From Ditylenchus dipsaci (Eukaryota > Nematoda > Chromadorea > Rhabditida > Anguinidae): a stretch of 64,000 nt of DNA. The notes under the pieces were generated by a model. It saw only the letters and a list, made by a program, of their open reading frames with translations. It searched no databases and was not told the DNA's origin. The position numbers were made by a program, and so were the translations under genes. The stretch lies in the NCBI GenBank assembly GCA_004194705.1, contig SADC01000040.1, forward strand, positions 1 to 64,000, written 5' to 3'. Below, piece after piece: positions 4,700 through 62,516 of this stretch (position 1 is the first letter of the stretch; the number at the start of each line of letters is the position of its first letter).

Positions 4700-5252
4700 G
4701 ATGTCTGTTTGTTTTGGCTGCTTCGCCATGTTTTTCAACATGAATGCATTTTATGCTTAAGAAATTTTCTCGGAATCATGTCTGAGCTAAATCAGTAAGC
4801 GCATCTCTAACGTAATCTCTGAAAGTTTAAGAGGAGGGTGAGGAAATGCAGTCGACTTCCGATTTAGTGTGGACAAAGCTTTTTTTGGAGCAAAAAGACT
4901 TTTTTGGGTCAAAAAGACTTTTTTTGGATCAAATTTTAGCTGGGTCAAAAAGACTTTTTCTTGGGTCAAAAAGACTTTTTTTGGATCAAATTTTAGCTGG
5001 GTCAAAAAGACTTTTTTTGGGTCAAATTTTTTTTTTCAAAAAGACCTTTTTTTTGGGCAAAAAAACTTTTTTTTGGAGCAAATTGGCTTTTTTTGGTGAA
5101 ATTTTTTTTAGTTGTAATTCTGCATTCCCTTTTATTTTTCTAACGGGCGACGGTAAATTCATCTACAAGGTTCAAATCCATGTGGAGGTGATCCATTTTA
5201 TCAGAATGTTCGAATCCGATAGGAAGCATCACTTTTCAAGGACACTCATTTG

Positions 5253-6249: not shown

Positions 6250-6289
6250 CTCATTTGGCCTCGATATTTGGAAACTGTGTCTTAAAGCC

Positions 6290-6905
6290 ACTTTTATAGT
6301 CCTTTTACAAACTCAGGCAAGGCCTTAGTTGCAGGGAAACCCCGAACCCCGAAATCCGAGGCGGGTACTTTCGAATATGTGGATATCCACCTGGCTGGCC
6401 TAAAAAAGATTTTTTATTTTAATTTAGACGTATGTTAAACCTTGCTAGCAATTCTGTTGGACAGGACCAAATATATATTTGTAGCCACCCGGACCCCTAT
6501 ACCTGGGTACCACCTGTCAAACATGACCCCCACACACAAGAAAAGTGGGTTGTTTTGACTTTGGCGGAGTTTCATTTTTGTCGGGCAGCCAGGTGGATAT
6601 CCACCTAACCGAAGAATACCCAAGGCATTTCGCTCCGCGTAGGGGGAATCTCAATTTAGGTACTAACAAATAATTTTTAAATTCTACTTAAATTCTACTT
6701 AAATTCTAATTTAAATTCAAATACCCGACACTTTTTTTAACCTAATTTTTGAAATCTTTGCCAGTTGTCTTCGGTCAGTCTAATCGCAAATATCGCAAGG
6801 ATTTTAATATTCGAAAGTACCCGCCTCGGATTTCGGGGTTCGGGGTTTCCCTGCAACTAAGGCCTTGCCTAAGTTTGTAAAAGGACTATAAAAGTGGCTT
6901 TAAGA
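6290..6905. repeat. Central inverted repeat with internal GTGGATATCCACC foldback
   Basis: The stretch AGGCAAGGCCTTAGTTGCAG to about 6372 is inverted at 6820-6880. Inside it, AGGTGGATATCCACCT-type ends at 6379-6395 and 6588-6606 border a smaller element. At 6725-6815 lies a copy of the dispersed CCCGACACTTTTT...TATCGCAAGGATT repeat also seen at 7255, 7490 (inverted), 16205, 19025 and 45560. Confidence 0.65.
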
Positions 6906-7221
6906 CACAGTTTCCAAATATCGAGGCCAAATGAGTGTCCTTGAAAAGTGATGCTTCCTATCGGATTCGAACATTCTGATAAAATGGATCACCTCCACAT
7001 GGATTTGAACCTTGTAGATGAATTTACCGTCGCCCGTTAGAAAAATAAAAGGGAATGCAGAATTACAACTAAAAAAAATTTTCACCAAAAAAAAGCCAAT
7101 TTGCTCCAAAAAAAAGGTTTTTTTGCCCAAAAAAGTCTTTTTGACCCAAAAAAAAGTCTTTTTGACCCAAAAAAAAGTCTTTTTGACCCAAAAAAAGTCG
7201 TTTTGCTCCAAAAAAAGCTTT

Positions 7222-8736: not shown

Positions 8737-11700
8737 TTAAGTGGCATGCTCGAGAACACCTCTCCTAATCAAATTTTCGCAGTCTTGCAGTGGCAGAAAG
8801 TGCTAAATAACGCAATTTAAAACTAAAAATCACAAACCCTAAATCAAAAAATTAACCATAGAATTTTTTGTGAACACAACTGTGGTGCCATCACTTGTCT
8901 CAAAGTCACCGTAATTTTGAAGAGCTCGAACCTGTAAAGGTTTATTCCCAATTACGAAAAATGTCGAGACAGTAATGAATGCTCGGCGATATTTCAATAT
9001 AACCCCTCCTCCTCCAAATCATGATTTTTAGGGGACACGGTCGTTTGTTCGAAAGTTCGTTTGTTCGAAAGCGTCGTTTGTTCGAAAATTTCGTTTGTTC
9101 GAAAAGTTCGTTTGTTCGAAAAGTTCGTTTGTTCGAAAGTTGTTCGAAAAGTTCGTTTGTTCGAAAAATGTTTCTTCGACCGAAAATTATAAAAGTTTTT
9201 TCAAATAATATTTATCTTGAGCGGAAGAACTTTTGTTTTTGTTGCTTCATTCATTTTTTTTGCTGTTCCTGTTAGTTGTAGCTGGTTCTCTCTTATTTTT
9301 TGTTTGGCATTTTATTTCTGGGACAAGTTAGACAAGTGCTTTATAATTGATTTCAGAAAGTGCGATGTCTGTCCGAAATGTCCTAGAAGCAATTGGTGGT
9401 TTCTATTCCGACTCTGATGATGATGGTGAAGAAGATCAGCAAGTATTGATGGTGGAGCCAGCCGAGCAGCAAAAAAATCGTCGTTGAGCATCTGGTGGTG
9501 GTGGAGCCAGTCATTCCGGTGGGTTTTAATTTATAGTTGGCAATCATTTCAAGTTTATTTTAAGAGTTTCCTCAAATCGGTGCAGGTCAAGGATGGTCAA
9601 GGATGGATTCTCAATTTGGACGGTCGTCTCTTCTGGAAGAACAAGCAGCACAAAACCACAGCTTACTGGAAGTGTGTCAAGGCAAACGATTTAGACTGCA
9701 AAGCTCGCACCAACACAAACACTCAGACTGGAGCTGTCATCAAGACCAAGAGGATTTACAATCACGACAAGTGTGCTACGTCTCTGCAAGTTCGAAATTT
9801 CAAGAATGCCGTCAAAGAAAAGGCTGGTGAGACAATATTGGTTTGAATTTGTTTATTTGTTTGATTCTTCCTTATGATTAATTGTTTAGAAGCCATCACA
9901 GATCTTCAATCAATTGCTAAAGAATGTTCCGGAAGCTGTGCAGGCATTAGTGGACAAAAGTGCAGAAAGGCTCGTCATTAGAAGAACAAGAAAGCGTGGC
10001 AGAGTGGAACCGGCGGCTATCAATGGAATGGACCTTGAAATCCCAGAGGCGGTCAAGACCTACAACTTTGCTCAGAACCTTCCGGAACTCTTTTTGCTTG
10101 GAGATGAATTTGATGAAGAAGGAAACAGGTTAGTGCTTTTTATTCACAGATGACCACTAGCAATGAATTTGTTTTAGGATTTTGCTTTTTGGTCGAGCCA
10201 GCAACAAGAATTGGTCGAGTCAAATAAAGGTCATCTTTATGGATGGAACGTTTAAAATCACACCTTTTCCATTCTATCAGGTTTGCTTAAATATTTTCAT
10301 TGTTGTACAGAGGATGTATAGATATTTTCAGGTTTACGTGATTCTGGCTGAAAGGGATGGCTACGTTTTTCCAGTTCTCTACGCTCTTCTTACAACCAAG
10401 CAGCAGATGGTCTATGAGAAACTCTTTCGAATGGTGCGCGGAATCTAGCCGGACGTTACTCCTTCAAGCGTCAGCATCGACTTCGAGATGGCAGTTATCA
10501 ATGCGGTGCAGCTGGTCTTTCCTGAGTCTGAAATCTGGGGATGCTTCTTTCACCTCGTGCAAAACATGATCAAGAAACTTGGAGCAAACAATCTGAAAGC
10601 GCGCTACGACCAAGATCCAGATTTTCAAGTGATGTGCAGTAAGTTTATTTTATGTAAAGATAGTTGCAACACTAATCTTGTTTTTTTAGGAATGATTCCA
10701 GCCATGGCATTTGTTCGACCAGATGAAGTTTTGCCAGTCTTTGAAGAGCTCGAAGAAATTTTGCCAGAAGAGTTGGATCCAGTCGTCAAATACTTCAAGA
10801 AGAATTACATCGGTATGTTCGTGATTCTTAACCCACATTTACTTCTTTCTTATTTGCAGGACAAGTTAACCGTCGCGGAAACTTTGCGCCTCCACTCTTT
10901 GCTCATTCGCTCTGGAACGTCTACGAGAGAACACTCAATGGAGCTCACAGGACGAATAATTTTGCTGAAGCCGCCAACCATCGCATCCAGACCGAATTCG
11001 ACATGTGCCATCCTGGACTCTACAACTTCGTAAATTGCCTCAAAAGGGTGCAGCGAGGACGTGATCAAAAGTTATTGCAGTGGCAGCTTGGCAAGAAACC
11101 AAAAGGGAAGAGAAGCAAGCACAAGGACGCCGATGCCCGCATTCTCAAAATCGTTGAAGCTTACGAGGAAAGAAGCACTGATGAATATCTCAAAGGAATT
11201 GCTAACAATTTTGTGATGGATAGTTAAATTGTTGTTGAATGGTTGTCTCATTTATTTTTGTTTGTCTTCTACCAATAAAATCATTTGTTCATAAAATCGT
11301 TACAAAAGAACAGAGAACAAAACGAACAGACACTTTTCGAACAAACAAACTTTTCGAACAAACGAAGTTTTCGAACAAACGAACTTTTCGAACAAACGAA
11401 CTTTTCGAACAAACGAACTTTTCGAACAAACGAACTTTTCGAACAAACAAACTTTCGAACAAACAAACTTTTCGAACAAACGACGCGTACCCGATTTTTA
11501 GGAGTGTTTAAATACTATTTTTATGTGATAATTTTGCCATAAAAAGCCTAAAAAGCAATTTATATAGAGACAAAGGGCTGTATAGGGAGGGCAAGGGACA
11601 AAATAGGGGGCACTTTATAAGACCAGTTTAGGCCCTTCAAGGAGGAAAAAAAATAACTATGTTGAACATAGTTTTGAATACTGGGGCCTACCGCATAAAT

Positions 11701-46009: not shown

Positions 46010-46017
46010 GTTTAATA

Positions 46018-47958
46018 CGTTACTACTCATTTGCGCAAAACTCATTTGCGCAAACTCATTTGCGCAAACTCATTTGCGCAAAACTCATATGCGCAAAACT
46101 CATTTGCGCAAAACTCATTTGCGCAAATTTTTTAAAGTTACAGGTTCGAATCCCGGTGGTAGCAGAATTTTTTTTCTTGAATAACAACCATAAACTAGTT
46201 TTATTAGACCAGTAAACCTCAGGTTGGATAGGAGGTCAACCTGGTACTTCTTTTGAATAGGCATTCAGCTCCAGAATCCGATATTTTGGATTACACTGAA
46301 AGTATTGAAAATCAATGTACCCTATCCAAAATTGTAACCTGAACACGGGGCTTGAGTTCAGAATCCCCCCCCCCCCACGGGGACTGATCAGGTGGAGGAG
46401 ATAACTTCATATTCGTGTTTCTCGACCCCGATTTCATGAGAAAGCCGCGCGTTTTTTTGGTTCTGAGAAAAAAAATTTTTTTCGAACCACAGGGGGGGGT
46501 ATCATGGTTTTTTAGTCAAAATTTGAAAAATTTAAATTGGCGCCTTTTGAATTTAAGAGGGATTAAGGGCTGTATAGGGAGGGGAAGGGAATAAAAGGGG
46601 CCACTAATCATAGAGGGCCCACTAACAAGAAGATGTTGAACATAGTTTTGAATACTGGGGCCTACCGCATAAATAAACTCTGGTATACATGCTTTTTCAT
46701 GCATCCAGAGTCACTTTCGAGTGATTTGTGTCTAAGGTATGTGTGTGCGCGCATCTCTAACTCTCAAGCCCCCTGCGCCCCCTCGGGGGCGCAGGGGCTT
46801 GAGAGCCCTATCCAAAATCGTGTCCTGAACACGGTTTGTCAAGACCAAAATGCTGTTTTAACCAACTGGAATGTCAATACCGTGAGTAGTTACCCACTCT
46901 AAGGTGGTCGACCTTAAACTTTTGTGAATTATTGTGAGTAGACAAACAAATTTTGCTTGCCTAAATCAATTCAGAAAAAAAGGTTTTGGAACATGAAAAA
47001 CGTAAATTTTTTTTTAATCCAAGTGGACTACCACTTGGTTTTGTTGTACCCAGGTGGTCGTACCCAGGTTGAAGAACTCAGGTAAAACTCCCAAGTAGTG
47101 AGGATGTTTTTCGGATGTTTTTGCGGGATGTTGTATAGCCCGGATGTTTTTCTATGGCCCAACTTCAGTTCCACCGGATAATCCATACCAACTTAACCAA
47201 GTGGTCGTCCACTCGGATGGAAATTTTTTTTACGTTTTTCATGTTCCAAAACTTGTTTTTTGGACTAATTCAGGCATGCTGAAGATGGTTTGATAGTGAT
47301 GAAATGCCGTTTCGCCGAGTATTTTTTGAGTATTCGGCAATAATTGATTTTACCCAAACTGGATTTTACCAAAACTCAAGAAATACCCTACAAAACGGTA
47401 TTTTACCACTATCAAACCATTTTCATCATGCCTGAATCAGTCCAGAAAACAAGTTTTAAGGCTCGAAAAAGTAAAAAAGTTTTTGCTGCAGGTTTTTGCT
47501 CCAGGTGGACGACCACTTGGTTTGGTCGGTTAAGACTAAAAAATTAAAATTACACCAAATTTTTTACTGAAAGTGAGAGTCCAAAAAAGTCATTGAATAC
47601 ACTGAAAGTGAATATAAGACTGAGAGGCAAATTTTTCCTATTGGGTACAACACTGAGAGTGAGAGTGAAAGGCATAGTGAGAGTGAGAGGAGAAACCACT
47701 TATTGTATACGTGGCCTTACAGGACTACTCCAGGACTGGGGTTTCTATTTCAAATCGTGTTCAGGACACGATTCTGAATAGGGTATGCTACCTTCAAAGT
47801 TTTTCCAGTGAAGAAAAAATAATTTCTGCTACCACCGGGATTCGAACCTGTAACTTTAAAAAATTTGCGCAAATGAGTTTTGCGCATATGAGTTTTGCGC
47901 AAATGAGTTTGCGCAAATGAGTTTGCGCAAATGAGTTTTGCGCAAATGAGTAGTAATC
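46018..47958. mobile_element. Foldback element with CTCATTTGCGCAAAA arms
   Basis: The left arm (46026-46126) and right arm (47865-47955) are inverted arrays of ACTCATTTGCGCAAA. Next to each arm lies TTACAGGTTCGAATCCCGGT, which contains a perfect tRNA-type B box. The direct repeat GTTTAATA (46010-46017 and 47959-47966) is a likely 8-bp target duplication. The core (46300-47710) includes CCAAGTGGWCGACCACTTGG palindromes and a module around GCATGCTGAAGATGGTTTGA. It is shared with 56131-57959 and 59871-61781, whose arms are different. It also contains the dispersed module at 46630-46800. No protein is evident. Confidence 0.88.
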
Positions 47959-48459
47959 GTTTAATAATATCCCGGTAATACATTTGTCGGATCTTTCAAA
48001 ACATTGAATTGCAGCTTCGGATTTCAACTTAAAAAGTCTGACAGTTGAAAAACATATTCTTCTAAGCAAAAACTTCTATTGCAATTAAATGTCCACCTCC
48101 AACTATCCCTTCCATGTCTAAGAAGGCGTTCCACTAAATGTGTTCAAATTAAATTAGAATAAATTGTCAGCCGACTAATTCGGTAATATAATTTGATGAC
48201 TGGAAAGAAAAACACCCAAATATATGGCATAATTAATAAAGTCAGTCTATTTTCATGCTGAAACTTACAAAACACATGTTTTATGCTGGCATTAAACAAA
48301 AAAAACAAGCTCCTTTCTTCTTTTAACTTTTTTTTCAGAGAATCATCTCCTACGTTTTTGGAAGAAATAAGTTAATTATACAGAAATGTCAATTGTTATT
48401 GTAAACATTTCGCTAGCATACCAAAAAATAAAAGTGCTTCACAAATACATTTGAAAAGC

Positions 48460-48600
48460 ACATAGCTCTCTGAGTGAAATTATCAGAGGATTGGAAAACC
48501 GAGTACATGTAATTGGAGAGCAAAAAAAGATTGGTGAAATTGTGGCGTCAATTCTTTTCGAAATTTTCAGCTGCAGCAAAAGCTGTAAATTATTATAATT
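48460..48600 (+). CDS. Possible exon, product unknown
   Basis: The frame SLSEIIRGLENRVHVIGEQK then KIGEIVASILFEIFS is open and looks helical. It runs up to the insertion point of the 48603-49581 element. A TTTTCAG at about 48330-48340 might open another exon upstream. No matching exon was found downstream of the element. Confidence is low. Confidence 0.25.
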
Positions 48601-48602
48601 TT

Positions 48603-49581
48603 GGAGCAACAGAACCTTTGGGGCCCACTCGCCAGAACCAAAGGGTCCCACTCGCCAGAACCAAAGGGGTCCCACTCGCCAGAAGCAAAGGGGTCCCACT
48701 CGGCAGAACCAGAGGGGTCCCACTCGCCAGAAGCAAAGGGTCCCACTCGGCAGAACCAGAGGGGTCCCACTCGCCAGAACCAGGGGTCCCAGGAGGTACC
48801 AATGAATTGTCAAATGCTTTCCAGCCACCAGAAGTCGAACGGAAGTGCAGGGTGACGTTGCTGTACAAATCGAGGACTTCCGAGCGGATTGGTGGTGGGA
48901 TCAGCCGTGGCCGTTAAGCGGGAAAAAGAAGATTTGTGCAGTCGTCGTAGAGATGTCCGCCGAAGAAATCACAGTTCAGTTTGGCACAGGAAAGCGGTTC
49001 CCTTATCGACGCTATCTATAAAATAAAATTAATGTCTTTCTGTCTGAATAGGTCATTGTATGTGAATAGTATTGCATTGTATGTGAATGATAATTAAATA
49101 AAGATTTAAATAAAGTTTGTGAATGGGACCCCCTGGTTCTGGCGAGTGGGACCCCTCTGGTTCTGCCGAGTGGGACCCTTTGCTTCTGGCGAGTGGGACC
49201 CCTCTGGTTCTGCCGAGTGGGACCCCTTTGGTTCTGGCGAGTGGGACCCCTTTGGTTCTGGCGAGTGGGACCCCTTTGGTTCTGGCGAGTGGGACCCCTT
49301 TGGTTCTGGCGAGCGGGCCCCAAATAAATAAAACACAAACTGAGTAAAAATTAAAAATGAGGATATTTTTCGCATAAGAAACAACGCGGAAATTCAAATG
49401 AAAACAATTTAAAAAAAAAACAATGGCAAAAGATAGCAGGGACCCCTTTGGTTCTGCCGAGTGGGACCCTTTGGTTCTGGCGAGTGGGACCCCTTTGGTT
49501 CTGGCGAGTGGGACCCCTTTGGTTCTGGCGAGTGGGACCCCTTTGGTTCTGGCGAGTGGGGCCCAAAGGTTCTGGATAGCC
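48603..49581 (+). mobile_element. Foldback element with coding arm, copy 2
   Basis: Same architecture as 27451-28472, with terminal GGAGCAACAGAACCTTTGGG and the inverse of GGCTATCCAGAACCTTTGGG, arrays of the CGCCAGAACCAAAGGGGTCC unit and the Trp-rich frame. The perfect 8-bp duplication ATAATTTT is at 48595-48602 and 49582-49589. Outside the arrays the two copies are almost identical apart from small indels, which points to recent movement. Confidence 0.93.
48852..49021 (+). CDS. Trp-rich reading frame of foldback element, copy 2
   Basis: GDVAVQIEDFRADWWWDQPW runs without a break into PLSGKKKICAVVVEMSAEE and ends FGTGKRFPYRRYL with TAA at 49019. AATAAA follows. Upstream, 16 bases present in copy 1 are missing here, so the link to the left array is out of frame in this copy. 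Between them the two copies suggest an ancestral frame that ran through the array. No family is recognised. Confidence 0.5.
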
Positions 49582-49589
49582 ATAATTTT

Positions 49590-50217
49590 ACTTAATTAAC
49601 CAGTAGCAAGACGACTTATCCAAATTTAGCTCATCCTATGTAATTTACATTAATTTTCTGGTTTAACGAGTAAGAAGAAGGCATCGAAGAAGGAATTCTT
49701 ATGTGAAATAAGATAGGAGAGCCTAAATAAATATTGTAATACTTAATTTGCAACCTCAGTTCTCAGTGGTCACTGACACGTTTGAATATTCATCGAAATT
49801 CAAATGATAACATTATTCTAACGGTTAAACGCAGATATAATTCGTATAGAGCCCGCTAGGCGCTTTTTAGATTATTTCAGAGAAATTTAAACCTCCACAC
49901 TGCCCTCAAACTCTACAGGCTTTGCCTTTTTTTGGATGTCAAGCCTTTCTTTTGGAACTGAAATAAGCATTTTGTTTGAAGTGCTTTTTTTCGAGAAACT
50001 TTTACATTAAATGCCTTTTTCACATGCTCATGGCTTTCACTGGGAAATCAGAGATGGCAACCCTGACTTTGCGGCACCGTAGCCACTAACCCCTTGCCAT
50101 ACTCCCACTATAAAACTACAAAAAAGTTTACTTGACTAAAGTGACAAGAAATACGAGCATCAATAACGATCTGATTTAATATGATCCATTGCTTGAACAA
50201 CGAAAATGAATTCTTCT
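49590..50217. other. Intergenic downstream of HINT gene
   Basis: No coding signal was found on either strand. A/T-rich, with no repeats that I can place. Confidence 0.4.
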
Positions 50218-51087
50218 TTAGCCCGGAGGCCAATTCAACTGACGCCCGCCAAGAACATGCAAGCTAAAATTGAATAGGGTGGATGCTGAATCAAGGAAAG
50301 AACGAAAACACATACTGCAAGTGATACACTGACTGACATCCATGTTTGCCATTATTCACCTAAATTTTAGAGACACCTCATTAAAGTGGGTCCAAGCATA
50401 GCACAAAATTTAACGAACCACAATGCGGTATCCTCCATCCAACTTCAATTCCTTTGCGACGTTCTTGGCTGCCAAAAATAGTTTACCGAGCAGCTCCGTG
50501 TCCTAAAAGTTCATACTCGAATAATAAAGACGACAAGTGGTGACTGTCGGAAAATTTGCCACCTCATTTTGCGCCTTCTCAATGCTCTCAATGGGCTTCT
50601 TCGGAATTACCAGAAAATGGACGGGAGCCTGAAAAATATCATGGGGCTCAAAATTTCTATAAATGCAAGCGTCAAAAAAATACCTGAGGCGATACATCGT
50701 GGAAAGCCAAAACCTGAAATTTTAGATACTTTGAGAGCAGTAACTAATTGACCGACCTGCTCATCTTCGTAAATTATCTTTGCTGGAATCTAAAAAGGAC
50801 AAAAATGTACGTAGATTATTCATACTTGTGAGAACTAAATGATAATGATGACCTCCTTGCGAATTATTTTTCCGAAAAGAGTGTCTCCACCTACAAAAAC
50901 GTTTTTACATGAAATTAATGTGGTTGAGTAATAAAGCTTTACCAGGCTTTGCAATCTGAGCCTTCTCTTTTTCATCCGCCATTCTGCTACTCGATGTAGA
51001 TATGTATGCAGACGAGAGTACAATTTTCTTCAAATTAAAAAGACTAGAACCAAAACGAAGACCAACACCAATCACTGCAGAACTCAT
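50218..51087 (-). CDS. hint-1: Histidine-triad nucleotide-binding protein (HINT1/2-like)
   Basis: HINT proteins hydrolyse purine nucleoside phosphoramidates. Eight exons with matching phases: 51087-50943, 50890-50853, 50789-50757, 50713-50684, 50628-50563, 50502-50419, 50359-50316, 50263-50218, total 161 residues. Landmarks are [33 protein letters not shown] and the catalytic triad SVYHLHLHVLGGRQ close to the C-terminus NWPPG. The core protein could start at Met 50982 (MADEKEKAQIAKP). The in-frame Met at 51087 adds 35 residues rich in Ser, Arg and hydrophobics with no acidic residue, which would suit a mitochondrial leader as in vertebrate HINT2. The gene looks fully intact, has only short introns and contains no transposon. 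Confidence 0.95.
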
Positions 51088-52235
51088 GCAAAAAAGCAAA
51101 AAGTTATTTACATTTCAAACCAGCGCGAAAATAGTAAGACTTTTATTTGGGAGCGCTGCTTGTGTGTAAAGAGTTCTGCAAGAAAGCAAACAATAGTTAA
51201 CAGGGAGGTTAAATTGGCTTTTAACTATGCGTGTAGTCTGTAATTTATATGATTATTTCCTGTTGGATTAAAATCACTTGTGGCTACAATGGAGGTAGGA
51301 AATCGGATGACGAGGTCATGAGGTCTTGTAGCTCTGCAAAATTTTTTAAACAAAAAGCCCGATAAATTCCATCAAAACATTACTTTCCGATAACTTGACA
51401 GGAAAAATGTTAGAATCGGACTACCGACTTTCTTGGTCTGACTTCGGCATCCTACCTTCATTGTTGAAGAGCATTAGAAAAGAGTACGAATAAAAAAGTT
51501 AATTTTTAGATCCACATCGATAAATAGGTAGTACAGAGATTTTCTATCTACCTGACAGTCAGGTCCTGACTATAGGCACGGAAAATCGCGCATTTAAGAC
51601 AAAATGTTATTTGACTAAAACATTTTGAGCATTTTGTAGATAGAAGCAATTTTTTCACTCACTCTGAGGGGTATATTCGGGTTGGATTTAGGTGAAACCG
51701 CAATTTTGGTTCTGACAAATTCAATTTCCTTAAATATTTTAGGTTGAAAATGATTAAAAATAATCATTTTCAGTCAAACCTCTATATATAGCATCCCGCA
51801 AGGGACCGGCTATGCCCGGATGCAATGAAAGAGGTGGATGCTGTATTGAGGGTTGCAATATAGAAATTCGTAGGGCAAATTATTGACAGTCGGACGCAAC
51901 AAAGAGGTTTTCACCAAAATATGTTTTTAACTAGGCGAAAGGCGCATATTGGCGCCTATATTGCGTCGCATATTTTTCCCGAAATTAGCGGGCATTTTTC
52001 ACAGATTAGCGGGCAGATTTAAATATTACCCCTTGTTCTTTGCAAATACGCAATAACAGATTTGCAAAATATTGACTATGCCCCGAGATATGGACTGTCC
52101 AAGTTGAGAAGGGGCGGAATTGGAGAAATTACAGTAATTGAAAAATAAGATTTTTGTCATTATGGTCAAGCGCAATTTTTTATAACTTTCTACTTGAGGG
52201 TGTGCTATTTTTGATTGACCTCTGAGTCACATCTG
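51088..52235. other. Intergenic, possible shared promoter region
   Basis: It separates two divergently transcribed genes (HINT on minus, the next gene on plus). No gene or clear repeat was found apart from weak GGATGCTGTATTG / CTATATATAGCATCC similarity near 51785 and 51836. Confidence 0.45.
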
Positions 52236-52267
52236 CTTTTAGAAAACTGTTGGCAAACGTGACAACT

Positions 52268-53663
52268 ATGAATCGCGCATCTATGAAGGTCAAGATTTCG
52301 CTAATCAACAAGATTATTTCTCGCAATGTCAGTGCTGTTCGAGGAACCGGAAAAAAGCCGGTAATTATTTTTTTAAACAAGATGATTAATAACTGATTCA
52401 ATGTTTTTTAAGCCACCGATGGAGCAATTTGATCCTCTGAATCCTGGTGAATGGCAGCTTGGGGTCACTGTTGTTTTTAAATTTGTTTTAATAATTAGGC
52501 TTTATTGGTTTAGGCTCAGGCCAAAATTCTTCCGCGTCTGCGTATGTGTTTCTACTTTAAAATATCTTTGAGTTAGTTCAAATAACATTTAGCTGAGGAT
52601 ACTGTCGTGGGGAACTGTAAGTGTCATTTTTTTAAATCAGGATTTGATTTTGTAACCAGCTCAACTTAATTTCTAGTAACAATGGGTAAATTTGGCCTGT
52701 ATCCTAAGAAAGTGATAGACAATGCCATGGAACATGCGGTCTGCTACTTTTTGGGCTCGTCTTTTTTTGCGTTTTCATGCAAGAACTTTATTTAGGAGGC
52801 TGCTCATCATGCTGATTCATCTTCCGAGGCCCGTCCGACGGATGCAATCAAGACAAAGATTGGCGATATCATTGGATACGCTCTACTGTAATACCGTGTC
52901 TCTATATTTATTTATTTACCTGATTTTTATTTTCTAGGGTTGTGGGCACTATCCAGGGCATTCAGGTTGGTTTTTGTGATATTCAGTAATCCGGGTTGGT
53001 AGGAGGTGGCCATCCTAGTACTCCGATACAGTGCCGATTTTTTCGAGGGGCGATTCACAATGCAAAATGAGTTGTAAACCAGTTACCTTTTATAAACTGG
53101 TCATTGCCTTCAAAATATGATTATGACTATAAAAACTTTTGTCGGATCAGTTGAACGCAAGATGTGAAAAAAGTTTCAAGAGATGAAAACTGCTGGTCCC
53201 CGCCTTTTTTCACTGCAATGGACTGGTATGTCCATTTCAGGATTAAAAATTATTCAAACGATTTTTTCATGAACGACCGCATTTTTCGGCCAAACTTCAA
53301 ACATTTTCGTCATTTAAGTTTTTGACCATTCCAACTTTAACCGCCCACAGGCGTGTGACTACTAGCTTCGAAACGCAGCTACATTTTGAGTGGTCATACT
53401 TTTACGTGTGATTAAATTTTCGCGTTGTGAAAATTTCAATACCACAAATGCTCCTTCAAACGATTAGATCACGTTATAGTTAACTTGTGTGCCTTATGCT
53501 TATAATGCACCTTGCTAATTTTTTATTGTTTAGATGATTACTGGCGTCTTCTGGTGGGTGATTGAACAATTTAAAGTTTCATCCTGAGGGTTCTACATTA
53601 TATGTTTTCTTCATTCAGGCCGTGGACTCTGCAACAGAAAAAGCACTAGGAATAAAGAAGTAG
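52268..53663 (+). CDS. Putative mitochondrial membrane protein, 150 residues
   Basis: Nine exons with consistent phases: 52268-52360, 52413-52469, 52514-52541, 52593-52616, 52677-52738, 52796-52887, 52938-52965, 53534-53557, 53619-53663. CTTTTAG at 52236-52242 is a likely trans-splice acceptor. The N-terminus (SLINKIISRNVSAVRGTGKK) is basic with no acidic residue, as in mitochondrial leaders. The middle reads EQFDPLNPGEWQLG and MGKFGLYPKKVIDNAMEHA. A hydrophobic segment IIGYALLVVGTIQGIQMITG follows, then a basic tail ALGIKK and TAG. The donor after exon 5 (GTCTGC) is weak. I do not recognise the family; a small subunit of an inner-membrane complex would fit but is only inference. Confidence 0.82.
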
Positions 53664-53880
53664 AAATCCTCTGCCACTATCAACAGTCTTGAAACTTTTG
53701 GTGTGTGTTTATAGAAATCTGTCTCATATATCATTGTGTAATGCCGGATATAGTAAATTAGTTGTTTATTACGTGCGTATAACTTCTATTTTTGTGTCTT
53801 CGCAACATAGCTGTGACTTCTACCCTGAACTAATTTTCAAAGAGTATTCTTACTTTATTTTCAGTTGTTAATTTTCAATA

Positions 53881-56800
53881 ATGCATGAGAGTAATGTACC
53901 TAAGTTAGATCTTGGAGGGCAAGATGATGTTAGCGAGTTATCTAGTGCATCTCGTCCATCTTCCTCTATAAATTTTGATGCTGAAAAAAAGATTAAACAT
54001 TCTCGTCAAAATGTTCAAATTGAACCTAAAATGAGAAAACTGCACTACATTTTCCAGGAATTGTATGTCTTTTACAGATTCCTACAGTTATTTTTTGGGT
54101 TATTTCAGTGCAGCAGTCGCAAAGGATCCCATAGAGGGGATTTACGTCACTCCTAGTGCCAAAAATCCACTAGGTTCTTGTCATTTCAATTTTGACAAAT
54201 AGGTTTTTTTTAATTTTGTTTGCTGTTTAGAGTGGTTCGGTTTATTGATTGTGAGGGCAGGTAGTTTAGTTAGTATTTTCATTTTCCGGTTGACAGATAT
54301 TAATTTAGGGATTTTCTGTGGTAGATACATACTTCGCTTAGGCACATAAATTGTTAGGCTATTTTTTTTAGGAGGAATGTTCCGATTTTCTTTGCTATTG
54401 CCCATTGATTTTCCGGACACCAAAGAAATGCCAGTATGTTGCATTGTTTAATTGACGTCTGCATGAAAACTTCGAAAACTAAGAACTTAGAAGGTCAACA
54501 AACCACACTCCGGGCGGGTGAGGATTGTGAGTGAAGATTGTTAACCTTTTTTCAACATTTTCAAATTCACAATAACTTTGTTAATAGCTTGTCTGGTAGC
54601 CCTGGATTTAAGCTGCAATATGACACAAAAAGTTGATTTTTGGAAATTTAAAAAAATTATGGTCATTTCCGAGTGAGGATTGTTGAATTTACAGTCCACC
54701 ATTGTTACCAGGCTTTAAGGTGTTCGTTTAGCGAAAATGAAAAAAGCTTTAAATATTGAAAAAAGTTTCTATCCACACAATAGGAACACGATACACTCCT
54801 TTCTTATTGCTTGATTTTTGCGGACGTTTTTGTTCTGTTCACTCATAGGATACATGACCAGTAATGTATTTTTGCGATTTTTCGCTCTGGTTCTGAAATC
54901 TAAGTTAAAAAAAATTGCTCCTGTTCTTGCTCCGGGCTCTCAACTTTGAAAAATTTGCTCCGGCTCTTGCTCCGGGCTCTCAGCTTGGAAAAATTTGCTC
55001 TGTCTCTGACTCCGAGCGAAATCTAGAGCCAGAAAATAATACGTATATACTCGCTATACGCGTATAAAATATCAATATATGATTTGAATTTTCTCTGAAT
55101 ATGGCTCCGAGATTTTTATTTGAAAAAATTTGTTTCGGCTCTCGCTCCGGGCTCTCCAGCTCTGCCTCCTGCTCGGAACCAGATCAGAGCGAGAGCCAGA
55201 GCCGGAGATTTATACATCACTGGTCATGACGAGCAAATTTATGAATGCAAATGTCGATCAAAGTGTGGTACTAACTAAAATGTTTTAGCTGGTGAAATTT
55301 GACGACGTTTTGTTTCACCCTTTAATCAATCCGAAAACCAATGTGAGTTCCATCAATTTTTTGTACAAATGGGCAATTCGGCACAGGTAACGAACAAGCA
55401 CCCCACTCGAGTGAAGAACAAGCACCCCACGATTTTAAAGAACATATAATATGCATTACAAATTTATTTTTAATGGTTCTATTGTTTTGACCAACATTTA
55501 GTTCGCATTTTTATTCCTGCTCGTATCTGTTCTGCTCATATCTGTTATATTTGTTTTATATCTTTTTTGTTCAGATGGCTTTGGACAGAAATGGTCGCTG
55601 TCATAAAAGTCGCTGGCTTTTCTCTGAACTGGACCGCTTGACAGAAAATGAAGACGAAATGCAGAAAGCCAAACATGCGTATTGAAAAGCGTAGAAATAA
55701 GTACCTTTATCACTTTTTTGAAGTGTGCCACAGGGGCCCAAAATTTGAATTTATAATCAGTTCAGCTTAAACAAAACGCCAAGAATTTTTGAATGGCTCT
55801 TTTTCGTAATTTTGGGATTTTTTTATTTTTTCAATGAATTGTTTCAACCAAAAGATCTTTTTTAACAAAATTGCGTCACATTGACCGTCTCTTACACATA
55901 TCACAACGAACCCAAAAGCGCTACAGCTTCAAATTCTGCTATAAGTTACCTTTTTTGCACAGTCAGTATTAAATGAAAGCAATCATCACAAAAAGGTCAA
56001 ATCCAAGAGTGGAAAGAAGAATTTATTACAGATCTAAATCATCTAGACCATCTTCATCCAAACACTCTACTTCGCCATCATATAACACATTCCGTACATA
56101 AGAGTTCTCCATAATTTTTTCTGAACAGCAGGGGCCTATTTCACTAATTGAAGATTGGAAAATGGAAAGTGGAAAATGGAAAGTGGAAAGTGGAAAATGG
56201 AAAGTCATTTTCTGTTTCACTAACATTTTGGAAAATGGAAAATTGGAAATGGAAAGCGGAAAGTGAAAAGTGGAAAATTTCCATGGAAAATTTCCGCTTC
56301 TGTTTCACTATTTGAAAAGTGGAAAATGGAAAGTGGAAAATTGGAAAATTTTCCATGGAAAATTGATGACTAAGGCTACGGTCTACAAATTTTTGGAAAA
56401 TTGGAAATTTTTTCAAGTAAGTCAGAAAACCATCCTATCTTACCTAAAATCATGTGCTGAACACGGTTTGTCAATACCAAAATGGCGATTTCACCAACTA
56501 CACACCCATATTGGGGTAAGTACATATCCTGAGGGGGCATCTGCCTCCAAATCACGAAAATATTAGTTTCTCACATGGGATTGTAAAACATGGCTTCTTA
56601 GCCAAAATTTTACGCTGAACATGGTTTGACAATACCGAAACTGTGTTTTCAACCATTCAAACTCCAAAACCTAGGGTAGGTACCCGTGGTTCAAGTGGAT
56701 ATTCAGGTGGAATTCTTTTTTACGTTTTTCATGCTCCAAAACCTGTTTTCTGGACTAATTCGAACATGCTGATGATGGTTTGATAGTGGTGAAATGCCGT

Positions 56801-59800
56801 TTTGTAAAGTATTTATTAAGTTCTGTTAAAATCGAGTTTTAATAAAATCAATTATTCCCCAATACTCAGAAAATATCCGAGAAAACCTTATTTTACTATT
56901 ATCAAACCATCTTCAGCATGCCCGAATCAGTCCAGAAAATAGGTTTTGGAACATGAAAAATGTAAAAAAAAAATTTGATCCAAGTGGACGACCACTTGGT
57001 TTTAATGGTCTAGAGGAGGTACCAGGTGGTTACCCTACCCACTTTGAGGCTTACTGGTCTTTTACAGAATAGTTTATAATTGTTATTAAAGAAACAATAA
57101 TGTCTGTTACCACCAGGATTCGAGCCTGTAACCTCAAAAATTTGGAGTGGCGATTTACATGGATATCCTAGTGGACCACCGGAAAACCAAGTGGTCGACC
57201 ACTTGGATCAAAAATTTTTTTTACGTTTTCGGGTTCCAAAACTATTTTTCTGCACTTTTGATAAATCAATCGTTAGCGATAACTCAAAAATTTCTCGATA
57301 AAACGTGATTTCACCACTGTCAAACCATATTCAGCATGCTCGAATTAGTGCAGAAAAATAGTTTTGGAACCCGAAAACGTAAAAAAAAATTTTTGATCCA
57401 AGTGGTCGACCACCTGGTCTAAATTGGGGAGGGTCGCCGTCACCGAGGTTACTGGTTCTAGTCCCACTAAGTGTAAACTTAATTTTTTTTACTTCCATTT
57501 TTTAGGTTACCCAGGTGGACGCCCACCTGACAAGGAAGTACCTACCCAGGAATTGGGGTTAGGGTGGGGGATATACAAGTGGACCACCCAAAAATTCAGG
57601 AGTCTATTAGACGTGTCAACGATTTATTATTAATACTAATTTTGGTCGATTGTGTATTTGTACTCTGATTACGGGGCTCGTGGCATAGAAAAATGACTTA
57701 ATTCGACTTTTCATGTAAAAATTATTTTATGGGAAATTTTTCATTTTCCATGGAAAATTGGAAAATGGAAACTGGAAAATGGAAAGTGAAATTTTTTTTA
57801 GTGAAACAGAAAACTGGAAAGTTTCCACTTTCCATTTTCCACTTTCCATTTCCAATTTTCGTTTAGTGAAACAGAAAATTATCACTTTCCATTTTCCACT
57901 TTCCATTTTCCAATTTTCCATGGAAACTTTCCCAATCTTCAATTAGTGAAATAGGCCCCAGACGTCACAGATAATTCAATCGTTTGAAGATCACGATTTG
58001 GAAACTGCTGCGCACCACCAAAGCCCAGCTGGAAATCTCTATTGCGCGATCGCTGAAAGACACAGTTATACTTGCATGGTCCCCGAAAAAATAAAAAGTG
58101 CCGCCGCCGACGCTTCAAACTCGTTAATTTTAGCCGCTGGCAGAAGGCGGCCGCCGACGCTCCGCCGGCGGCCGTGCAAATATGAACACAATCATAAAAT
58201 ATAGTTGACCATGACATTAAAATTTACCTGCTTAAACTGATCAGAGGTGTTCAAAGCTATTCATATCAAGCAAGAAGAGCTCACACGTACGTACGTGTCT
58301 ATTTATCTATAATTTTATTCTAATAGGCAAATTCAATTTCGCTGTGGAAAACGTTGTCCGGGAAGTAAAAAATGTGATGGGGGACTTGGTTTTCTAGTCG
58401 GCTCATATTTGGAGGCTTCAAAGATTCCGGTTGTTTCCGCCTTAAAGTTCATCTATTTATGGTTTTATAAAGTTCATCTATTTATTTCTTTTTTTCATTT
58501 ATATTTCTTGGGGTCTTGACAATGGAAATTCTGTGGTTGCCGAGCAAGAATATTTCTTTCTACAAGCAGTACCAGTTCAGAAACATCAAGGCAGATTCCA
58601 ATCCGAAATATTTGGTCGAACTATAAGTTGAGATTATTTCGTGTGCTTTTGTATTTGTGTGATAAACTATGCGGTATCTAATAAAATCGGGTGAAATTCT
58701 GTGGTGCTTGTTCTTCACTCGAGTGGGGTGCGTGTTCTTTACTCGAGTGGGGTGCTTGTTCTTAACCTTGGGCGGGCAATTTATTAATGATAAACTATTA
58801 ATCTTAGATCACTGACCTTAGCCGTTATTTCCCGAGTGGATGGCAAAGAGAGAGGAATCACATATACCAGATACTTACAGCCACCCAAAGTATGTTTTTT
58901 CGTTGCAAAGTGGAAACAGGACATGCTGCAAACCCGGTTTGATTTCCACTATAAGTAAATTACATGGGAACCGATTTCAGGAGGCAGCTATTTTGTTAAC
59001 AGAAAACAGCACTAAATTCAAGCAGATGGCTCGTGATGCAGTCAGGTTAAATTTTTGTTGATGCAGCTTTTTAACCTGGGATTATTTAGGAGAAGTAGAA
59101 CTCAGATATATGATGTTGCCAACTCAGACGATCCTAATGCTATTTGGTAGCTGAGTTTTCTTGGGGTTTAAAGACATATTTGACTATAGTGAAATGCTTA
59201 AGTACGTCATAATCAGTGATGGGTAAGCAGGCAATTTTCGCCCCAGCACCGCCCCACGCCCCAGGGTTTTCCAGACTATCGCCATGGCACCGCCCACGCC
59301 CCAGAATTTTCCAGACTATCGCCCCGGCACCGCCTCATGCCACAGGGCGTGGCACCCCGGGGCGGTGCGCACCGGATAATGTAGCAGTTCCGAAGATTTT
59401 TAAAAGCCACCATTATGCTTCTACGCGATTTGTAAGGCTAATTGGATCAAACTTTAAAAATTGAAGTCATCTTGCAAAGTTTTAAGAGAAATTTGAAAAA
59501 TCCGAGGGCCCCGTACCGCGCCCCAGAAATAATTCTGCCTCCGCCCCGCCCCTCGCCCCGGACTATTTTTTTTCGTGAAGTAGCAATCGAGGTCAACAAG
59601 TAGCCGTAGAAGTCTCCTTTCTCTTTGAACAAATAACATCTTTGTGCGACCCTGCGATTGTAAGTTGTAATGAGGTGTCACATCTCATCAGCATTCAAAT
59701 TGAGCAAAACCTTAAGCTCAACATATGCAGCATATGTTAGTAGGAACTTAAAATTGTGTTCCTATATGAGTTTTAAAATCCTTCACTTAATTTAAAAAAA

Positions 59801-62516
59801 ATCATAAATATTCGCCATCATTCAAAAAATTGGGCAAATTTTCATATTCGTGCTAATATATTACAGTTCTGGGCAGCGACATATTGCGCCATATCAAATT
59901 GCGCCATATCAAATTGCGCCACATTCAAATTGCGCCGCCGCAAATTGCGCCGCCGTAAATTGCGCCAATGTAAATTGCGCCACATTCAAATTGCGCCGTA
60001 TTCAAATTGCGCCACCGCAAATTGCGCCGCATTCAAATTGCGCCACCGCAAATTGCGCCGCATTCAAATTGCGCCCACGCAAATTGCGCCGCATTCAAAT
60101 TGCGCCACCGCAAATTGCGCCGCATTCAAATTGCGCCATTGTGTAGTGTAATGAAACATCACCATTAAACCTTTTAAAATTCTCGTCTTAACCTGTTTTC
60201 ATGTGCTCTAACGATCAGTTTAGCAAATGGTCAGAGTATTTCATACTGAAAGAGGCAATGTCCTTAGCTTCTAAAAAATTGTGGCGCAACAGCGATATCA
60301 ACAAACCAAGAGCATCTGGTGGAAAAGAAGGTGCATCATGGTCATCTCCCTGATACAGCTCTCGTTGAAGTTTTTTTCCTTCTTGCAGTGGTTTTTTTAT
60401 CTCATACTTTAAGGTCAGGAAGAGGGTTTCGGAAGCGATTTCAGCAGCAGAAAGCAATCGTGACACGCCGGTGAGTAGCCTAGTGGATTTAGCATTCAAC
60501 GGGCTTGTGGGAGAAATTTAATCGGTACTTTAGTCATGACAATCCGTCGCTTGCAGATGTAATCTTGAAGCTTCAAACAGATGAGGAGAAGGTGCGACAG
60601 AAGATTGAACTGTAATTTCTCTATTATTTTTTTTTGAGCGTGCTTATAAACCATAATGTTTAGTAGTCTCGGCTCAAATATAGTATACCCACCCCACTGA
60701 ACTATAGTATACCCACCCAGAAATTTGCCTTGGTCCCCCAAGCTGATTTTTTTGCAAAAAAAAATTGTAAAAAAAAATCAGCTTGGGGGACCAAGGCAAA
60801 TTTCTGGGGTGGGTATACTATAGTTCAGTGGGGTGGGTATACTTAAGTTTAGCCGTCGTCTCTACAATCCGTTGGCGCGCGTGACAGGTGGAATCAGGTC
60901 GAAAAAAGCAATATATTCCGCCGATCAAATTAAGCAGCTGGTTACCAACTACGTCGATGGTGGTGGGCAACTTCGGATGGAATTCCTTGTCTCAATTGGT
61001 GCCCATCTAGAAAAGTACCAAAGCAATTAAATCACAATATTTATGTTACACTGTTGTGCTTTTTTCGGTTTATTGTTATGCATTTCTCGAAACGAAATAA
61101 ACTAGTGATTGTTGTTGAAAAGATTTTTTTTTTGAGGAACAAGAGTTAATTCGTTTTTTTAAGTCAGAAACCTCTGCCGTAAAAAAGGGCCAGTGATCTA
61201 CAAACTCGATTTTACCAATACTCAAAAAATACCCTAGAAAACCGTATTTTACCACTATCAAAGCATCTTCAGCATGCCCGAATTAGTCTAGAAAACTAGT
61301 TTTGGAACCCGAAAAGTGAAAAAAATTGCTCCAAGTAGACGACCACTTGGTTTAGATGGTTCAGACTGAAAAATTTTAATTCCCACGAAATACGTTAGAT
61401 AGAAAGTGAGTGTCAAAAAAGTCATTGGGTACACTGAAAGTTAGAATGAAAGAAAGATTGAGAGGCAATTTCTCCACGTTGGTACACACTGAAAGTGAGA
61501 GTGAAAGGAAAATCTTTTTTGATTGAAAGGAAACGTGGCTTTACTGGCGCAATCTGCGGCGGCGCAATTTGAATTCGGCGCAATTTGCGGTGGCGCAATT
61601 TGAATGCGGCGCAATTTGCGGTGGCGCAATTTGAATTCGGCGCAATTTGATATGGCGCAATTTGAATGCGGCGCAATTTACGGCGGCGCAATTTGCGGCG
61701 GCGCAATTTGAATGTGGCGCAATTTACGGCGGCGCAATTTGCGGCGGCGCAATTTGAATGTGGCGCAATATGTCGCTGCCCACAGTTCTAGGAGTCACGA
61801 ATAAAGCAAATGATTCTAGTACAGTCAACCTACGATTTGGCGTCACCCCGATTTAACTTCACCCTCGGTTTTACATCACCTAAAAACTGGACGATCTGTT
61901 TGTCTTTAGCTTTAAATTAAGGCAAATTAAACCCTCGATTTAACAATGTCACCACATGGCCGGTTCCTGGAGTTTACGTTAAATAGAGGGATGACTGTCG
62001 ATAGAAATTTATTAGTTTTTTGTTACAACTGGATTTCAGCTTCACACCATGGAATGAGAAGGAAATGGAACCTGTAAAAGAGGTATTCAAATTATCTGAC
62101 AGGCTTCTGATAAAGTATACATTTTAAGTATCTCATCGGCAAAAAACCTCTAGATAAGTCTTTGTCTGGAATTGCTGGTAAAAAAAATTAATTTCCATTT
62201 TGTTGCTTTTTCTAATTCAAACTTTTTAGGTGAATACACTCAGAGCTCCAATAAAAAGTTAGGCTATTCTTGGGTAGATTCAGAAAGATGCTATTACATG
62301 TGTGACCTGTTTCCAACAGTCTGTTTTTTGGAACGGTTTTAGTTTATGTCTGCCTGTCTATTTGCAGCAAATACCGAACCATCTAGCCAGTTCCCGATCG
62401 GTCACCGGAACCCCGAAGAAGACTTGTCTCCCAAAGTATTGGAGTTGAGTCTGAAATCTAGCGAAAGCAACCAAGAAATGGTCTCTACAAATCCACTTAG
62501 TAGCGAAAAGTTATAA
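53881..62516 (+). CDS. AKTIP: AKTIP/Fused-toes-like UEV protein
   Basis: FTS/AKTIP is an E2-like protein without catalytic cysteine that works with Hook proteins in vesicle transport. Twelve exons in phase: 53881-54062, 54109-54173, 54231-54260, 54372-54433, 55289-55342, 58808-58936, 58981-59045, 59090-59146, 62040-62082, 62129-62177, 62230-62301 (or to 62322), 62368-62516, about 318-325 residues (human 292). UBC-fold landmarks are EGIYVTPSAKNPLEWFGLLI, GGMFRFSLLLPIDFPD, KFDDVLFHPLINP, RNHIYQILTATQSMFFRCKV and HAANPEAAILLTENSTKF, then DDPNAICFTPWNEKE matching the AKTIP tail. No cysteine lies at the E2 active-site position. TTTTCAG at 53858-53864 precedes the ATG by 16 bases. Introns 5 and 8 are filled by 3.4-kb and 1.9-kb transposons, yet every exon is open. 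AATAAA follows near 62540. Confidence 0.93.
54520..54720. repeat. Decayed copy of the 8285-8692 MITE
   Basis: GTCTGGTAGCCCTGGATTTA, GGTCATTTCCGAGTGAGGA and TTACCAGGC correspond to the right arm of the MITE at 8285-8692. The left part is reduced to GGGTGAGGATTGTGAGTG. It lies in AKTIP intron 4. Confidence 0.65.
54859..55222. mobile_element. hAT-like MITE with GCTCCGGCTCT arms
   Basis: CAGTAATGTATTTTTGCG at the left faces ATACATCACTG at the right. The arms are arrays of TTGCTCCGGGCTCTC units, inverted as GAGAGCCAGAGCCGGAG. The flanking 8-mers TACATGAC and GTCATGAC match at 6 of 8. It is in AKTIP intron 4. Confidence 0.72.
56026..58205 (-). pseudogene. Interrupted coding remnant, family unknown
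   Basis: On the minus strand RNRDFQLGFGGAQQFPNRDL and QTIELSVTS (about 58055-57965) lead to the right end of the 56131-57959 element. On its other side CCSEKIMENSYVRNVLYDGE then VECLDEDGLDDLDL-stop (56123-56026) continues in a compatible way and is followed by AATAAA. The most economical reading is one gene of the outer element split by the inner one. Upstream sequence is GC-rich (GCCGCCGACGC-type repeats near 58100-58170). The family is not recognised. Confidence 0.5.
56131..57959. mobile_element. Foldback element with GGAAAATGGAAAGT arms
   Basis: The ends GGGGCCTATTTCACTAATTG are exactly inverted. The left arm (56150-56370) and right arm (57725-57945) are arrays of GGAAAATGGAAAGTGGAAA units with TCTGTTTCACTA spacers. 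The core shares modules with 46018-47958 and 59871-61781: CTGAACACGGTTTGTCAATA (56459), ATGCTGATGATGGTTTGATA (56767), the CCAAGTGG/CCACTTGG palindromes, and TTACCACCAGGATTCGAGCC, a tRNA-like B box, at 57110. The flanking 8-mers do not match, so no target duplication can be claimed. Confidence 0.82.
59214..59590. repeat. GC-rich hAT-like fragment in AKTIP intron 8
   Basis: CAGTGATGGGTAAGCAGGC opens a stretch of GCCCCAGCACCGCCCCACGC repeats, which reappear inverted (GGCGTGGCACCCCGGGGCGG), and related sequence occurs near 59510-59570. The CAGTGATG start is hAT-like. No clean right end or target duplication was found. Confidence 0.55.
60215..60499 (-). CDS. Doubtful helical open frame inside 59871-61781
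   Basis: A 94-codon minus-strand frame reads LLTGVSRLLSAAEIASETLF, then LKYEIKKPLQEGKKLQRELY and a Pro/Leu-rich end. Its N-terminal side may be spliced to sequence up to about 60620. The opposite strand of the same region is also protein-like (LKEAMSLASKKLWRNSDINK), so I cannot tell which, if either, is coding. Confidence 0.3.
   Translation of the reverse strand: MNAKSTRLLTGVSRLLSAAEIASETLFLTLKYEIKKPLQEGKKLQRELYQGDDHDAPSFPPDALGLLISLLRHNFLEAKDIASFSMKYSDHLLN
60676..60842. repeat. Near-perfect hairpin (GTATACCCACCCC arms)
   Basis: GTATACCCACCCCACTGAAC at the left to CCCCCAAGCTGATTTTTTT is inverted after a short A-rich loop. It is nested in 59871-61781. Confidence 0.8.
60846..61030 (+). CDS. 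Possible terminal exon inside 59871-61781
   Basis: RRLYNPLARVTGGIRSKKAI then YSADQIKQLVTNYVDGGGQL and FLVSIGAHLEKYQSN-stop form an open, protein-like frame right after the hairpin. No upstream exon could be joined with confidence and no family is recognised. Confidence 0.35.
61822..61997. mobile_element. Pogo-like MITE (CAGTCAACCTACG ends)
   Basis: CAGTCAACCTACGATTTGGC faces GTTAAATAGAGGGATGACTG, with internal ACCCTCGATTTAAC repeats. TA precedes the left end, while TC follows the right end, so one duplication has mutated. It lies in AKTIP intron 8. Confidence 0.7.

What the first reader, a model, noticed from the sequence alone, without database searches (positions are those of the whole stretch)
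46018..61781. Three 1.9-kb foldback elements share a core but have three unrelated terminal arrays
The elements 46018-47958, 56131-57959 and 59871-61781 have similar lengths (1941, 1829 and 1911 bases). They share internal modules: ATGCTGAAGATGGTTTGATA, the CCAAGTGGWCGACCACTTGG palindromes, and CTGAACACGGTTTGTCAA in the first two. In the first and third, about 300 bases next to the right arm are also homologous. Their terminal inverted arrays are built from quite different units: CTCATTTGCGCAAAA, GGAAAATGGAAAGTGG and ATTCAAATTGCGCCGC. Two have clear 8-bp duplications. This suggests that cores exchange arms, or that arms turn over very quickly by unequal exchange while the core is kept. I know of no described family with this pattern.
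Basis: partly seen in the sequence, partly recalled or inferred. Interest (0 to 1): 0.88.

Follow-up and report, generated by a model that had tools for sequence, protein, structure and literature searches.

The report
Palindrome cassette shared by foldback transposons
In a 227-Mb animal genome, most likely that of the stem nematode Ditylenchus dipsaci, foldback transposons with different ends and insertion marks carry the same palindromic filler, and in one family it sits where another copy has a gene that looks like its transposase, so the insides of these elements seem to move between families.

Summary
The three elements are real and each belongs to a family: 493 (E1), 138 (E2) and 129 (E3) ends within 2 mismatches. 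E1 and E3 have 8-bp target duplications (7 of 8; 17 of 24 copies). E2 follows a 3-bp CWG rule, so its ends are of another kind. The shared part is a ~300-bp palindrome P, often with a neighbour module T. A P 26-mer occurs 2,054 times. P was read in five further element types with other arms. In family E4 the first 300 bases, arm included, are 99.7% identical between a copy with a coding, MULE-like interior (L077) and copies whose interior is E2's P1-T-P2 cassette; the joins show no duplication. In trees the E4, E5 and X74 cores lie among E2's. Mutator/foldback elements (Tm1), chimeric Galileo and Pack-TIRs are known; five literature searches found no shared palindromic cassette across foldback families with different ends.

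The parts
46010..46017 (.). E1 left target duplication GTTTAATA (right copy 47959-47966)
   Evidence: 8-bp duplication in 7 of 8 fetched E1 copies
46018..46130 (+). E1 left arm, 15-bp units CTCATTTGCGCAAAA
46126..46250 (+). E1 T module with B-box-like GGTTCGAATCC; homologous to E2 57016-57143 (inverted) and to L071, L075
46349..46805 (.). 457-bp stretch of this E1 copy, missing between the aligned blocks of the 7 other fetched copies
46814..46867 (+). CTGAACACGG module shared with E2 56446-56499
46955..47042 (+). extra half palindrome P in E1
47195..47523 (+). E1 palindrome P, bounded by CCAAGTGG..CCACTTGG-like motifs
47528..47672 (+). flank right of P shared with E3 61358-61508 (77%)
47811..47958 (-). 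E1 right arm with inverted piece of T
56132..57958 (+). E2 element, ends GGGCCTATTTCAC, 7/14-bp arm units, 3-bp duplication CAG (56129-56131 / 57959-57961)
56659..57601 (+). E2 stretch found as the interior of E4 (L069, L076), 92-97% identical
56708..57003 (+). E2 palindrome P1
57016..57143 (-). E2 T module
57183..57418 (+). E2 palindrome P2 (about 80 bases shorter than in many other copies)
59871..61781 (+). E3 element, ends GGGCAGCGACATATTGCGCC, 8-bp duplication ACAGTTCT (59863-59870 / 61782-61789)
60670..60855 (.). 186-bp palindrome in this E3 copy, left out of the alignments of most other listed places
61201..61353 (+). E3 half palindrome P
61358..61508 (+). E3 flank shared with E1
9032..11492 (+). 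foldback with 17-bp arm units carrying FLYWCH and MULE transposase exons, 9-bp duplication GATTTTTAG: shows that foldbacks of this genome include Mutator-like elements

Best explanation
The three elements are non-autonomous foldback transposons of different families. Most of those read here have 15-17-bp arm units and 8-9-bp duplications and are best read as Mutator-like (MULE). E2 has 3-bp CWG duplications and belongs to another type. Their interiors are filler, and one filler, the palindrome P with its neighbour T, has become very common. When an element breaks (after excision or at a stalled fork, helped by hairpin-forming arms and palindromes), the gap is repaired by copying from another P-bearing element with little or no homology at the joins. 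The repaired element keeps its arms, so its transposase can still move it, but its own gene is gone. It is then amplified, as in E4, where most scored arm-bearing copies leave the gene at one and the same base. Repeated rounds give one core with many arms and one arm with several interiors. SHOWN: shared cores, different ends and duplications, E4 with and without the cassette, no duplication at the cassette joins, tree nesting. INFERRED: that E2 was the donor, break repair as the route, the role of hairpins, and MULE identity for E1, E3, E4, E5 and the X types.
For: P 26-mer 2,054 sites against 493/138/129 ends of E1/E2/E3. Of 5 P sites picked from the 100 listed, 4 lie in complete foldbacks with duplications, in 3 arm types other than E1-E5; L072 is unclear. 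E4: L077 holds a coding interior behind 300 bases (arm included) that are 99.7% identical to L069; L069 and L076 hold E2 529-1471 instead. In one search (40 of 95 candidates scored) 29 of 40 E4-armed places leave L077's sequence exactly at base 300, the junction base; 4 run on into the coding part, L077 itself among them; 7 do other things. Joins: left without clear overlap, right with a 2-base GA overlap. Core tree: E4 groups with E2 copies L015/L036 and L020 (90/88), E5 with L021/L038 (87/75); 0% of 200 bootstrap trees put E2 on one side. P tree: E2+E4+E5 P1 rows together 100/97; P2-type rows of E2, E4, E5 and X74 together 100/100; E1 and X71 apart. Duplications: E1 8 bp in 7 of 8, E3 8 bp in 17 of 24, E2 CWG in 15 of 16. 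The window's own foldback 9032-11492 has FLYWCH (E 1.9e-8) and MULE (5.4e-7).
Against: In the cassette tree 1 of 19 inner branches is starred, 15 are open, and the bootstrap had not settled. E4's P1 pairs with L015 (90/76) and its P2 with L013 (84/55), so no single E2 copy is the evident donor. An unsampled family could be the source of all three. No intermediate was seen. Pfam found nothing in L077's coding pieces; the MULE reading rests on a 35-residue, 40% local match to the window MULE. L077's right arm is cut by the end of the fetched piece (44 bases seen), so its duplication was not checked. E2's transposase is unknown. The older E1-E2-E3-X71 sharing (70-83%) could be common descent with arm turnover. 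Only 2 of the 29 E4 junction places were read.
Confidence: 0.6

Rival explanations
1. P is a small MITE that inserted independently into unrelated foldbacks.
For: P is a palindrome with sharp CCAAGTGG..CCACTTGG edges and its 26-mer has over 2,000 sites. Nested insertions do occur here (E5 in another palindromic repeat; probably E3 60670-60855).
Against: By eye I saw no duplication at P's edges in E1 and E2; this was not tested systematically. Shared segments differ in extent: E2 529-1471 in E4, about 485-1126 plus an inverted part in E5, P alone or half P plus a flank in E1/E3. In E4 coding sequence is missing where the cassette sits. The window shows P only inside E1-E3, and of the 5 chosen sites none is a clear solo P, L072 being unclear.
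Confidence: 0.18
2. Common descent: an ancestral foldback had the T-P core, and arms diverged by unequal exchange while the core stayed.
For: T and P occur together in E1, E2, E4, E5, X71, X75. Most arms keep a 15-17-bp period, and a few units look alike (X71-X74 and X74-X72, 10 of 11 bases). Best fit for E1 against X71/X75, where T and P match at 70-81%.
Against: Cannot explain cores 92-98% identical under wholly different ends and different duplication lengths (E2 3 bp, E4 8 bp), nor E4 ends 99.7% alike with different interiors. E1-E3 units are not significantly alike.
Confidence: 0.17
3. Assembly or collapse artefact joining different repeats.
For: Repeat-rich draft assembly of 1,359 contigs.
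Against: The chimeric elements have their own matching target duplications in all 7 for which I had found ends by eye (L072, L077, L078 not among them), and one E4 junction base recurs at 29 of 40 scored places.
Confidence: 0.03

Closest known systems
Tm1, Mutator/Foldback family of root-knot nematodes (Meloidogyne), PMC3169594; read: abstract, sections 8 and 9, part 1 of section 11
   Same: Foldback arms of about 14-bp units, unequal outer ends, FLYWCH+MULE transposase in the putative autonomous copy, non-autonomous classes that differ in interior (histone hairpin, MITE-like, deletion derivatives). The window element 9032-11492 matches this plan.
   Different: Tm1 is one arm family with 9-bp duplications. 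In what I read no interior shared across different arm families is described.
Galileo chimeric copies, Drosophila mojavensis, PMC3573991; seen: search listing and passages found by term
   Same: Two TIRs of one subfamily around an interior of another (X-E-X); exchange between long-TIR elements proposed.
   Different: P superfamily, 7-bp duplications, subfamilies of one element. Here the families have different ends and duplication lengths, and the filler is a palindrome.
Pack-TIRs / Ssk-FB4 with gap filling or fork-stalling template switching (FoSTeST), PMC8277862; seen: search listing and passages found by term
   Same: Foreign sequence inside a TIR transposon, microhomology of 1-36 bp (median 2) at breakpoints, some cases amplified.
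   Different: The fillers there are duplicated host sequences; here the filler is a transposon-borne cassette recurring in several families.

Membership tests
Mutator-like (MULE) foldbacks, Phantom/Tm1 type | FLYWCH + MULE transposase between the arms | tested here: inconclusive
   Met for window 9032-11492. Not seen in E1-E3 (E3 pieces: Pfam none; E1 and E2 frames only listed). L077 (E4) coding pieces: Pfam none, weak local match to the window MULE.
Mutator-like (MULE) foldbacks, Phantom/Tm1 type | 8-11-bp target duplication (range recalled; Tm1 paper says 9) | tested here: met
   E1 and E3 8 bp; E4, E5, L073 8 bp; L071, L074, L075 9 bp.
Mutator-like (MULE) foldbacks, Phantom/Tm1 type | the same duplication length for E2 | tested here: not met
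   0 of 18 copies have a perfect duplication longer than 3 bp (L038 in that list is the same place as L021); CWG rule 15 of 16.
PIF/Harbinger (considered for E2) | DDE_Tnp_4 transposase inside E2 ends | tested here: inconclusive
   One listed DDE_Tnp_4 match (C1177:2602609) lies 1.4 kb inside a listed E2 end (C1177:2601178) (both lists capped). By rough arithmetic of mine about 0.3 such coincidences are expected, so it is no evidence by itself.
MITE insertion (P as its own MITE) | target duplication at P's edges and solo copies | tested here: inconclusive
   Not met at the E4 cassette joins; no clear solo copy in the window or at 5 chosen sites. Small sample; older sharing not tested.
Chimeric Galileo-type elements | P-element-type transposase, 7-bp duplication | tested here: not met
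   Duplications 8, 9 or 3 bp; P-type transposase was not searched for.

The most novel reading that the evidence does not exclude
P-T is a hyperparasite of transposons: a cassette with no ends of its own that spreads by being copied into broken elements of any family, across transposase superfamilies, turning autonomous copies into carriers of itself. Its hairpin would make it both fragile and a preferred repair template.
Probability: 0.2. Interest if true: 0.78.

Novelty: new variant of a known kind. Interest (0 to 1): 0.57.

Why it matters
Transposons are classed by ends or by transposase, and interiors of non-autonomous copies are usually taken to descend from the autonomous one. Here the interior passes between families, so repeat libraries built on internal similarity could merge unrelated families and hide others. 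The E4 set (ends with a coding interior, and the same ends with a borrowed cassette) makes the origin of non-autonomous foldbacks directly testable.

Tried and rejected
Solo-MITE reading of P: not supported for E4, open for the older sharing. tRNA or Rfam identity of T: ARAGORN found one tRNA in the window, outside the elements, and none in L069-L078; Rfam at a relaxed threshold gave 47 matches in 45900-62000, all below the families' gathering scores, most of them hairpin-like miRNA models on palindromes, and no tRNA family. Arm-unit homology as a general rule: weak statistics, E1-E3 not significant. Pfam on L077 and E3 coding pieces: nothing above cut-off. PDB search with an L077 piece: nothing below E 0.2. 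BLASTP of window ORF 10488-11033 against the L077 tail: no match; the correct frame of the window tail did match. An E1-ended 3.2-kb element on C176, a possible autonomous E1, could not be fetched. Literature: five paper searches showed in their listings no report of a core shared by foldback families with different ends; one search found no paper at all. PMC11118728 was seen in passages only. The field fold and structure tools were not used.

Full report
WHAT WAS CHECKED. The window is contig C40:1-64000 of a 226,978,389-base genome in 1,359 contigs. It is most likely Ditylenchus dipsaci. A coding piece from this genome matches two UniRef D. dipsaci proteins, at 61% over 73% and 89% over 23% of the query, and the second begins with nearly the same residues as another L077 frame. 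The published D. dipsaci genome size is 227.2 Mb (PMC11118728, passages). I call the elements E1 (46018-47958), E2 (56132-57958 by its ends) and E3 (59871-61781); X71, X73, X74 and X75 stand for the elements in L071, L073, L074 and L075.

Arms, arrays and shared modules are confirmed. E1 and E3 have 8-bp duplications in this window and in most fetched copies with both ends: 7 of 8 (with E1's ends set two bases outside TTACTAC) and 17 of 24; no 8-bp match in 56 and 552 mismatched pairings. E2 has none longer than 3 bp in 18 copies. With fixed ends 10 of 18 have an identical 3-mer, against 73 of 306 mismatched pairings. For the CWG count I left out L017, L030 and L038 (the last is the same place as L021), added L010, and slid an end by one base in six copies: 15 of 16 agree, L010 does not, p 0.0002. 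The similar lengths are accidental: E1 here holds a 457-bp stretch that the seven other fetched copies lack, which measure 1334-1491 bp.

COPY NUMBERS. Ends within 2 mismatches: E1 493, E2 138, E3 129, with reversed-pattern controls of 3, 0 and 0. A 26-mer of P within 1 mismatch: 2,054, control 0. Six of the 100 P places listed there lie in the 40 places, which are E1-type cores. One P can hold the 26-mer twice, so 2,054 counts motifs, not palindromes; the ends were counted with other lengths and mismatch limits. P still looks too common to belong to E1-E3 alone.

SAME CORE, OTHER ARMS. Two places found through E2's core turned out to be new foldbacks. L069 (E4): 134-bp identical inverted ends, 8-bp duplication. 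L070 (E5): 15-bp units, 8-bp duplication, inserted in another palindromic repeat whose uninterrupted sequence is in the same locus. Of five P sites that I picked from the list by contig before seeing them, four lie in complete foldbacks with 8- or 9-bp duplications: L071 and L075 of one type, L073, and L074. L072 has an array on one side only and no duplication that I could find. P is thus seen under at least eight arm types.

SAME ARM, OTHER INTERIORS. The E4 arm was searched alone (40 of 99 candidates scored). L077 carries E4's first 300 bases, arm included, 99.7% identical to L069, in front of coding-like frames, one of which begins inside the 300 shared bases; its right arm is cut by the end of the fetched piece. 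L069 and L076 leave that gene at the same base and continue with E2 529-1471, then rejoin E4 sequence near the right arm. In one search (40 of 95 candidates scored) 29 of 40 places stop at exactly that base, 4 continue into the gene (L077's own place included), and 7 end elsewhere or begin inside. L078 has an E1 arm (E1 3-315, 93.7%) with a different sequence behind it, which may be a nested element.

WHAT THE JOINS SAY. In E4 the left join has no clear overlap between E4 gene and E2 core. The right join overlaps by the two bases GA. There is no duplication, and the gene's interior is absent in L069 and L076. This is what repair of a broken element from another template leaves. It is not what insertion of a MITE leaves.

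TREES. With the 598-base core of 24 E2 rows (some places fetched twice), L069, L076 and L070, E4 groups with L015/L036 and L020 (90/88) and E5 with L021/L038 (87/75); 0% of 200 bootstrap trees had E2 on one side; 1 of 19 inner branches is starred and 15 are open. A tree of 41 P sequences splits off a P2 type (14 rows, 100/100) from the rest. E4 and E5 each carry both types, and each lies among E2's; X74's P is of the P2 type and pairs with E5's (99/94); E1 (100/99) and X71 (100/98) stand apart. E4's P1 and P2 have different nearest E2 copies, with modest support. Both bootstraps had not settled. Reading: at least two separate transfers from E2-like elements, plus an older sharing whose route is open.

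WHAT KIND OF ELEMENT. The window itself holds a foldback with 17-bp arm units, a 9-bp duplication and exons with FLYWCH (E 1.9e-8) and MULE (E 5.4e-7). That is the plan of Tm1, the Mutator/Foldback family of root-knot nematodes (PMC3169594; abstract, sections 8 and 9, part 1 of 11). E4's coding remnant shows a 35-residue, 40% match to this MULE's tail but no Pfam hit. So MULE identity is likely for the 8-9-bp families and unproved for E1 and E3. E2 fails the duplication test. Whether E2 is PIF/Harbinger is open.

MECHANISM. Most likely: a break in a foldback, ectopic copying from a P-bearing element, and amplification of the chimera by the transposase that reads the unchanged arms. Published precedents are Pack-TIRs with median 2-bp microhomology, among them an FB4 case (PMC8277862, passages), and Galileo X-E-X chimeras (PMC3573991, passages). 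Here the filler is neither host sequence, as far as seen, nor from the same family. It is a recurring palindromic cassette.

NOVELTY. A new variant of a known kind. The most novel reading, P-T as a cassette parasite of transposons, is not excluded but rests on few read junctions.

Noticed in passing
window 9032-11492: Foldback with 17-bp arm units and FLYWCH+MULE exons, 9-bp duplication; a Tm1-like Mutator element.
   Followed up: partly
G000 C968:78440-82914: Three E4-type copies in tandem with a period of about 1,570 bases (coordinates; not read): possibly a transposon turning into a satellite.
   Followed up: no
window 46143, 47838, 57116, 57454; L069, L070, L071, L072, L073: B-box-like GGTTCGANTCC (at most 1 mismatch) in most P-bearing element types read (not in E3, L074, L075); possible Pol III or tRNA-derived piece.
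   Followed up: partly
L078 1133-1371 and 1608-1876: 27-29-bp satellite containing CAAGTGGTCGTC, the same motif as the edge of P.
   Followed up: no
window 60070-61040 (E3 interior): Coding-like fragments on both strands inside E3 (for example one ending MEFLVSIGAHLEKYQSN); possible captured gene pieces, Pfam none.
   Followed up: partly
window 27468-28466 and 48620-49564: Two copies of another foldback with 24-bp units GGGGTCCCACTCGCCAGAACCAAA.
   Followed up: no
window 216-1061 and 4875-7221: Further foldback-like inverted arrays (GACTCGTTACAAC; AAAGACTTTTTTTGGGTCAA), the latter enclosing 41-bp arrays.
   Followed up: no
window 3915-4604: hAT C-terminal dimerisation domain (Pfam E 1.5e-16).
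   Followed up: no
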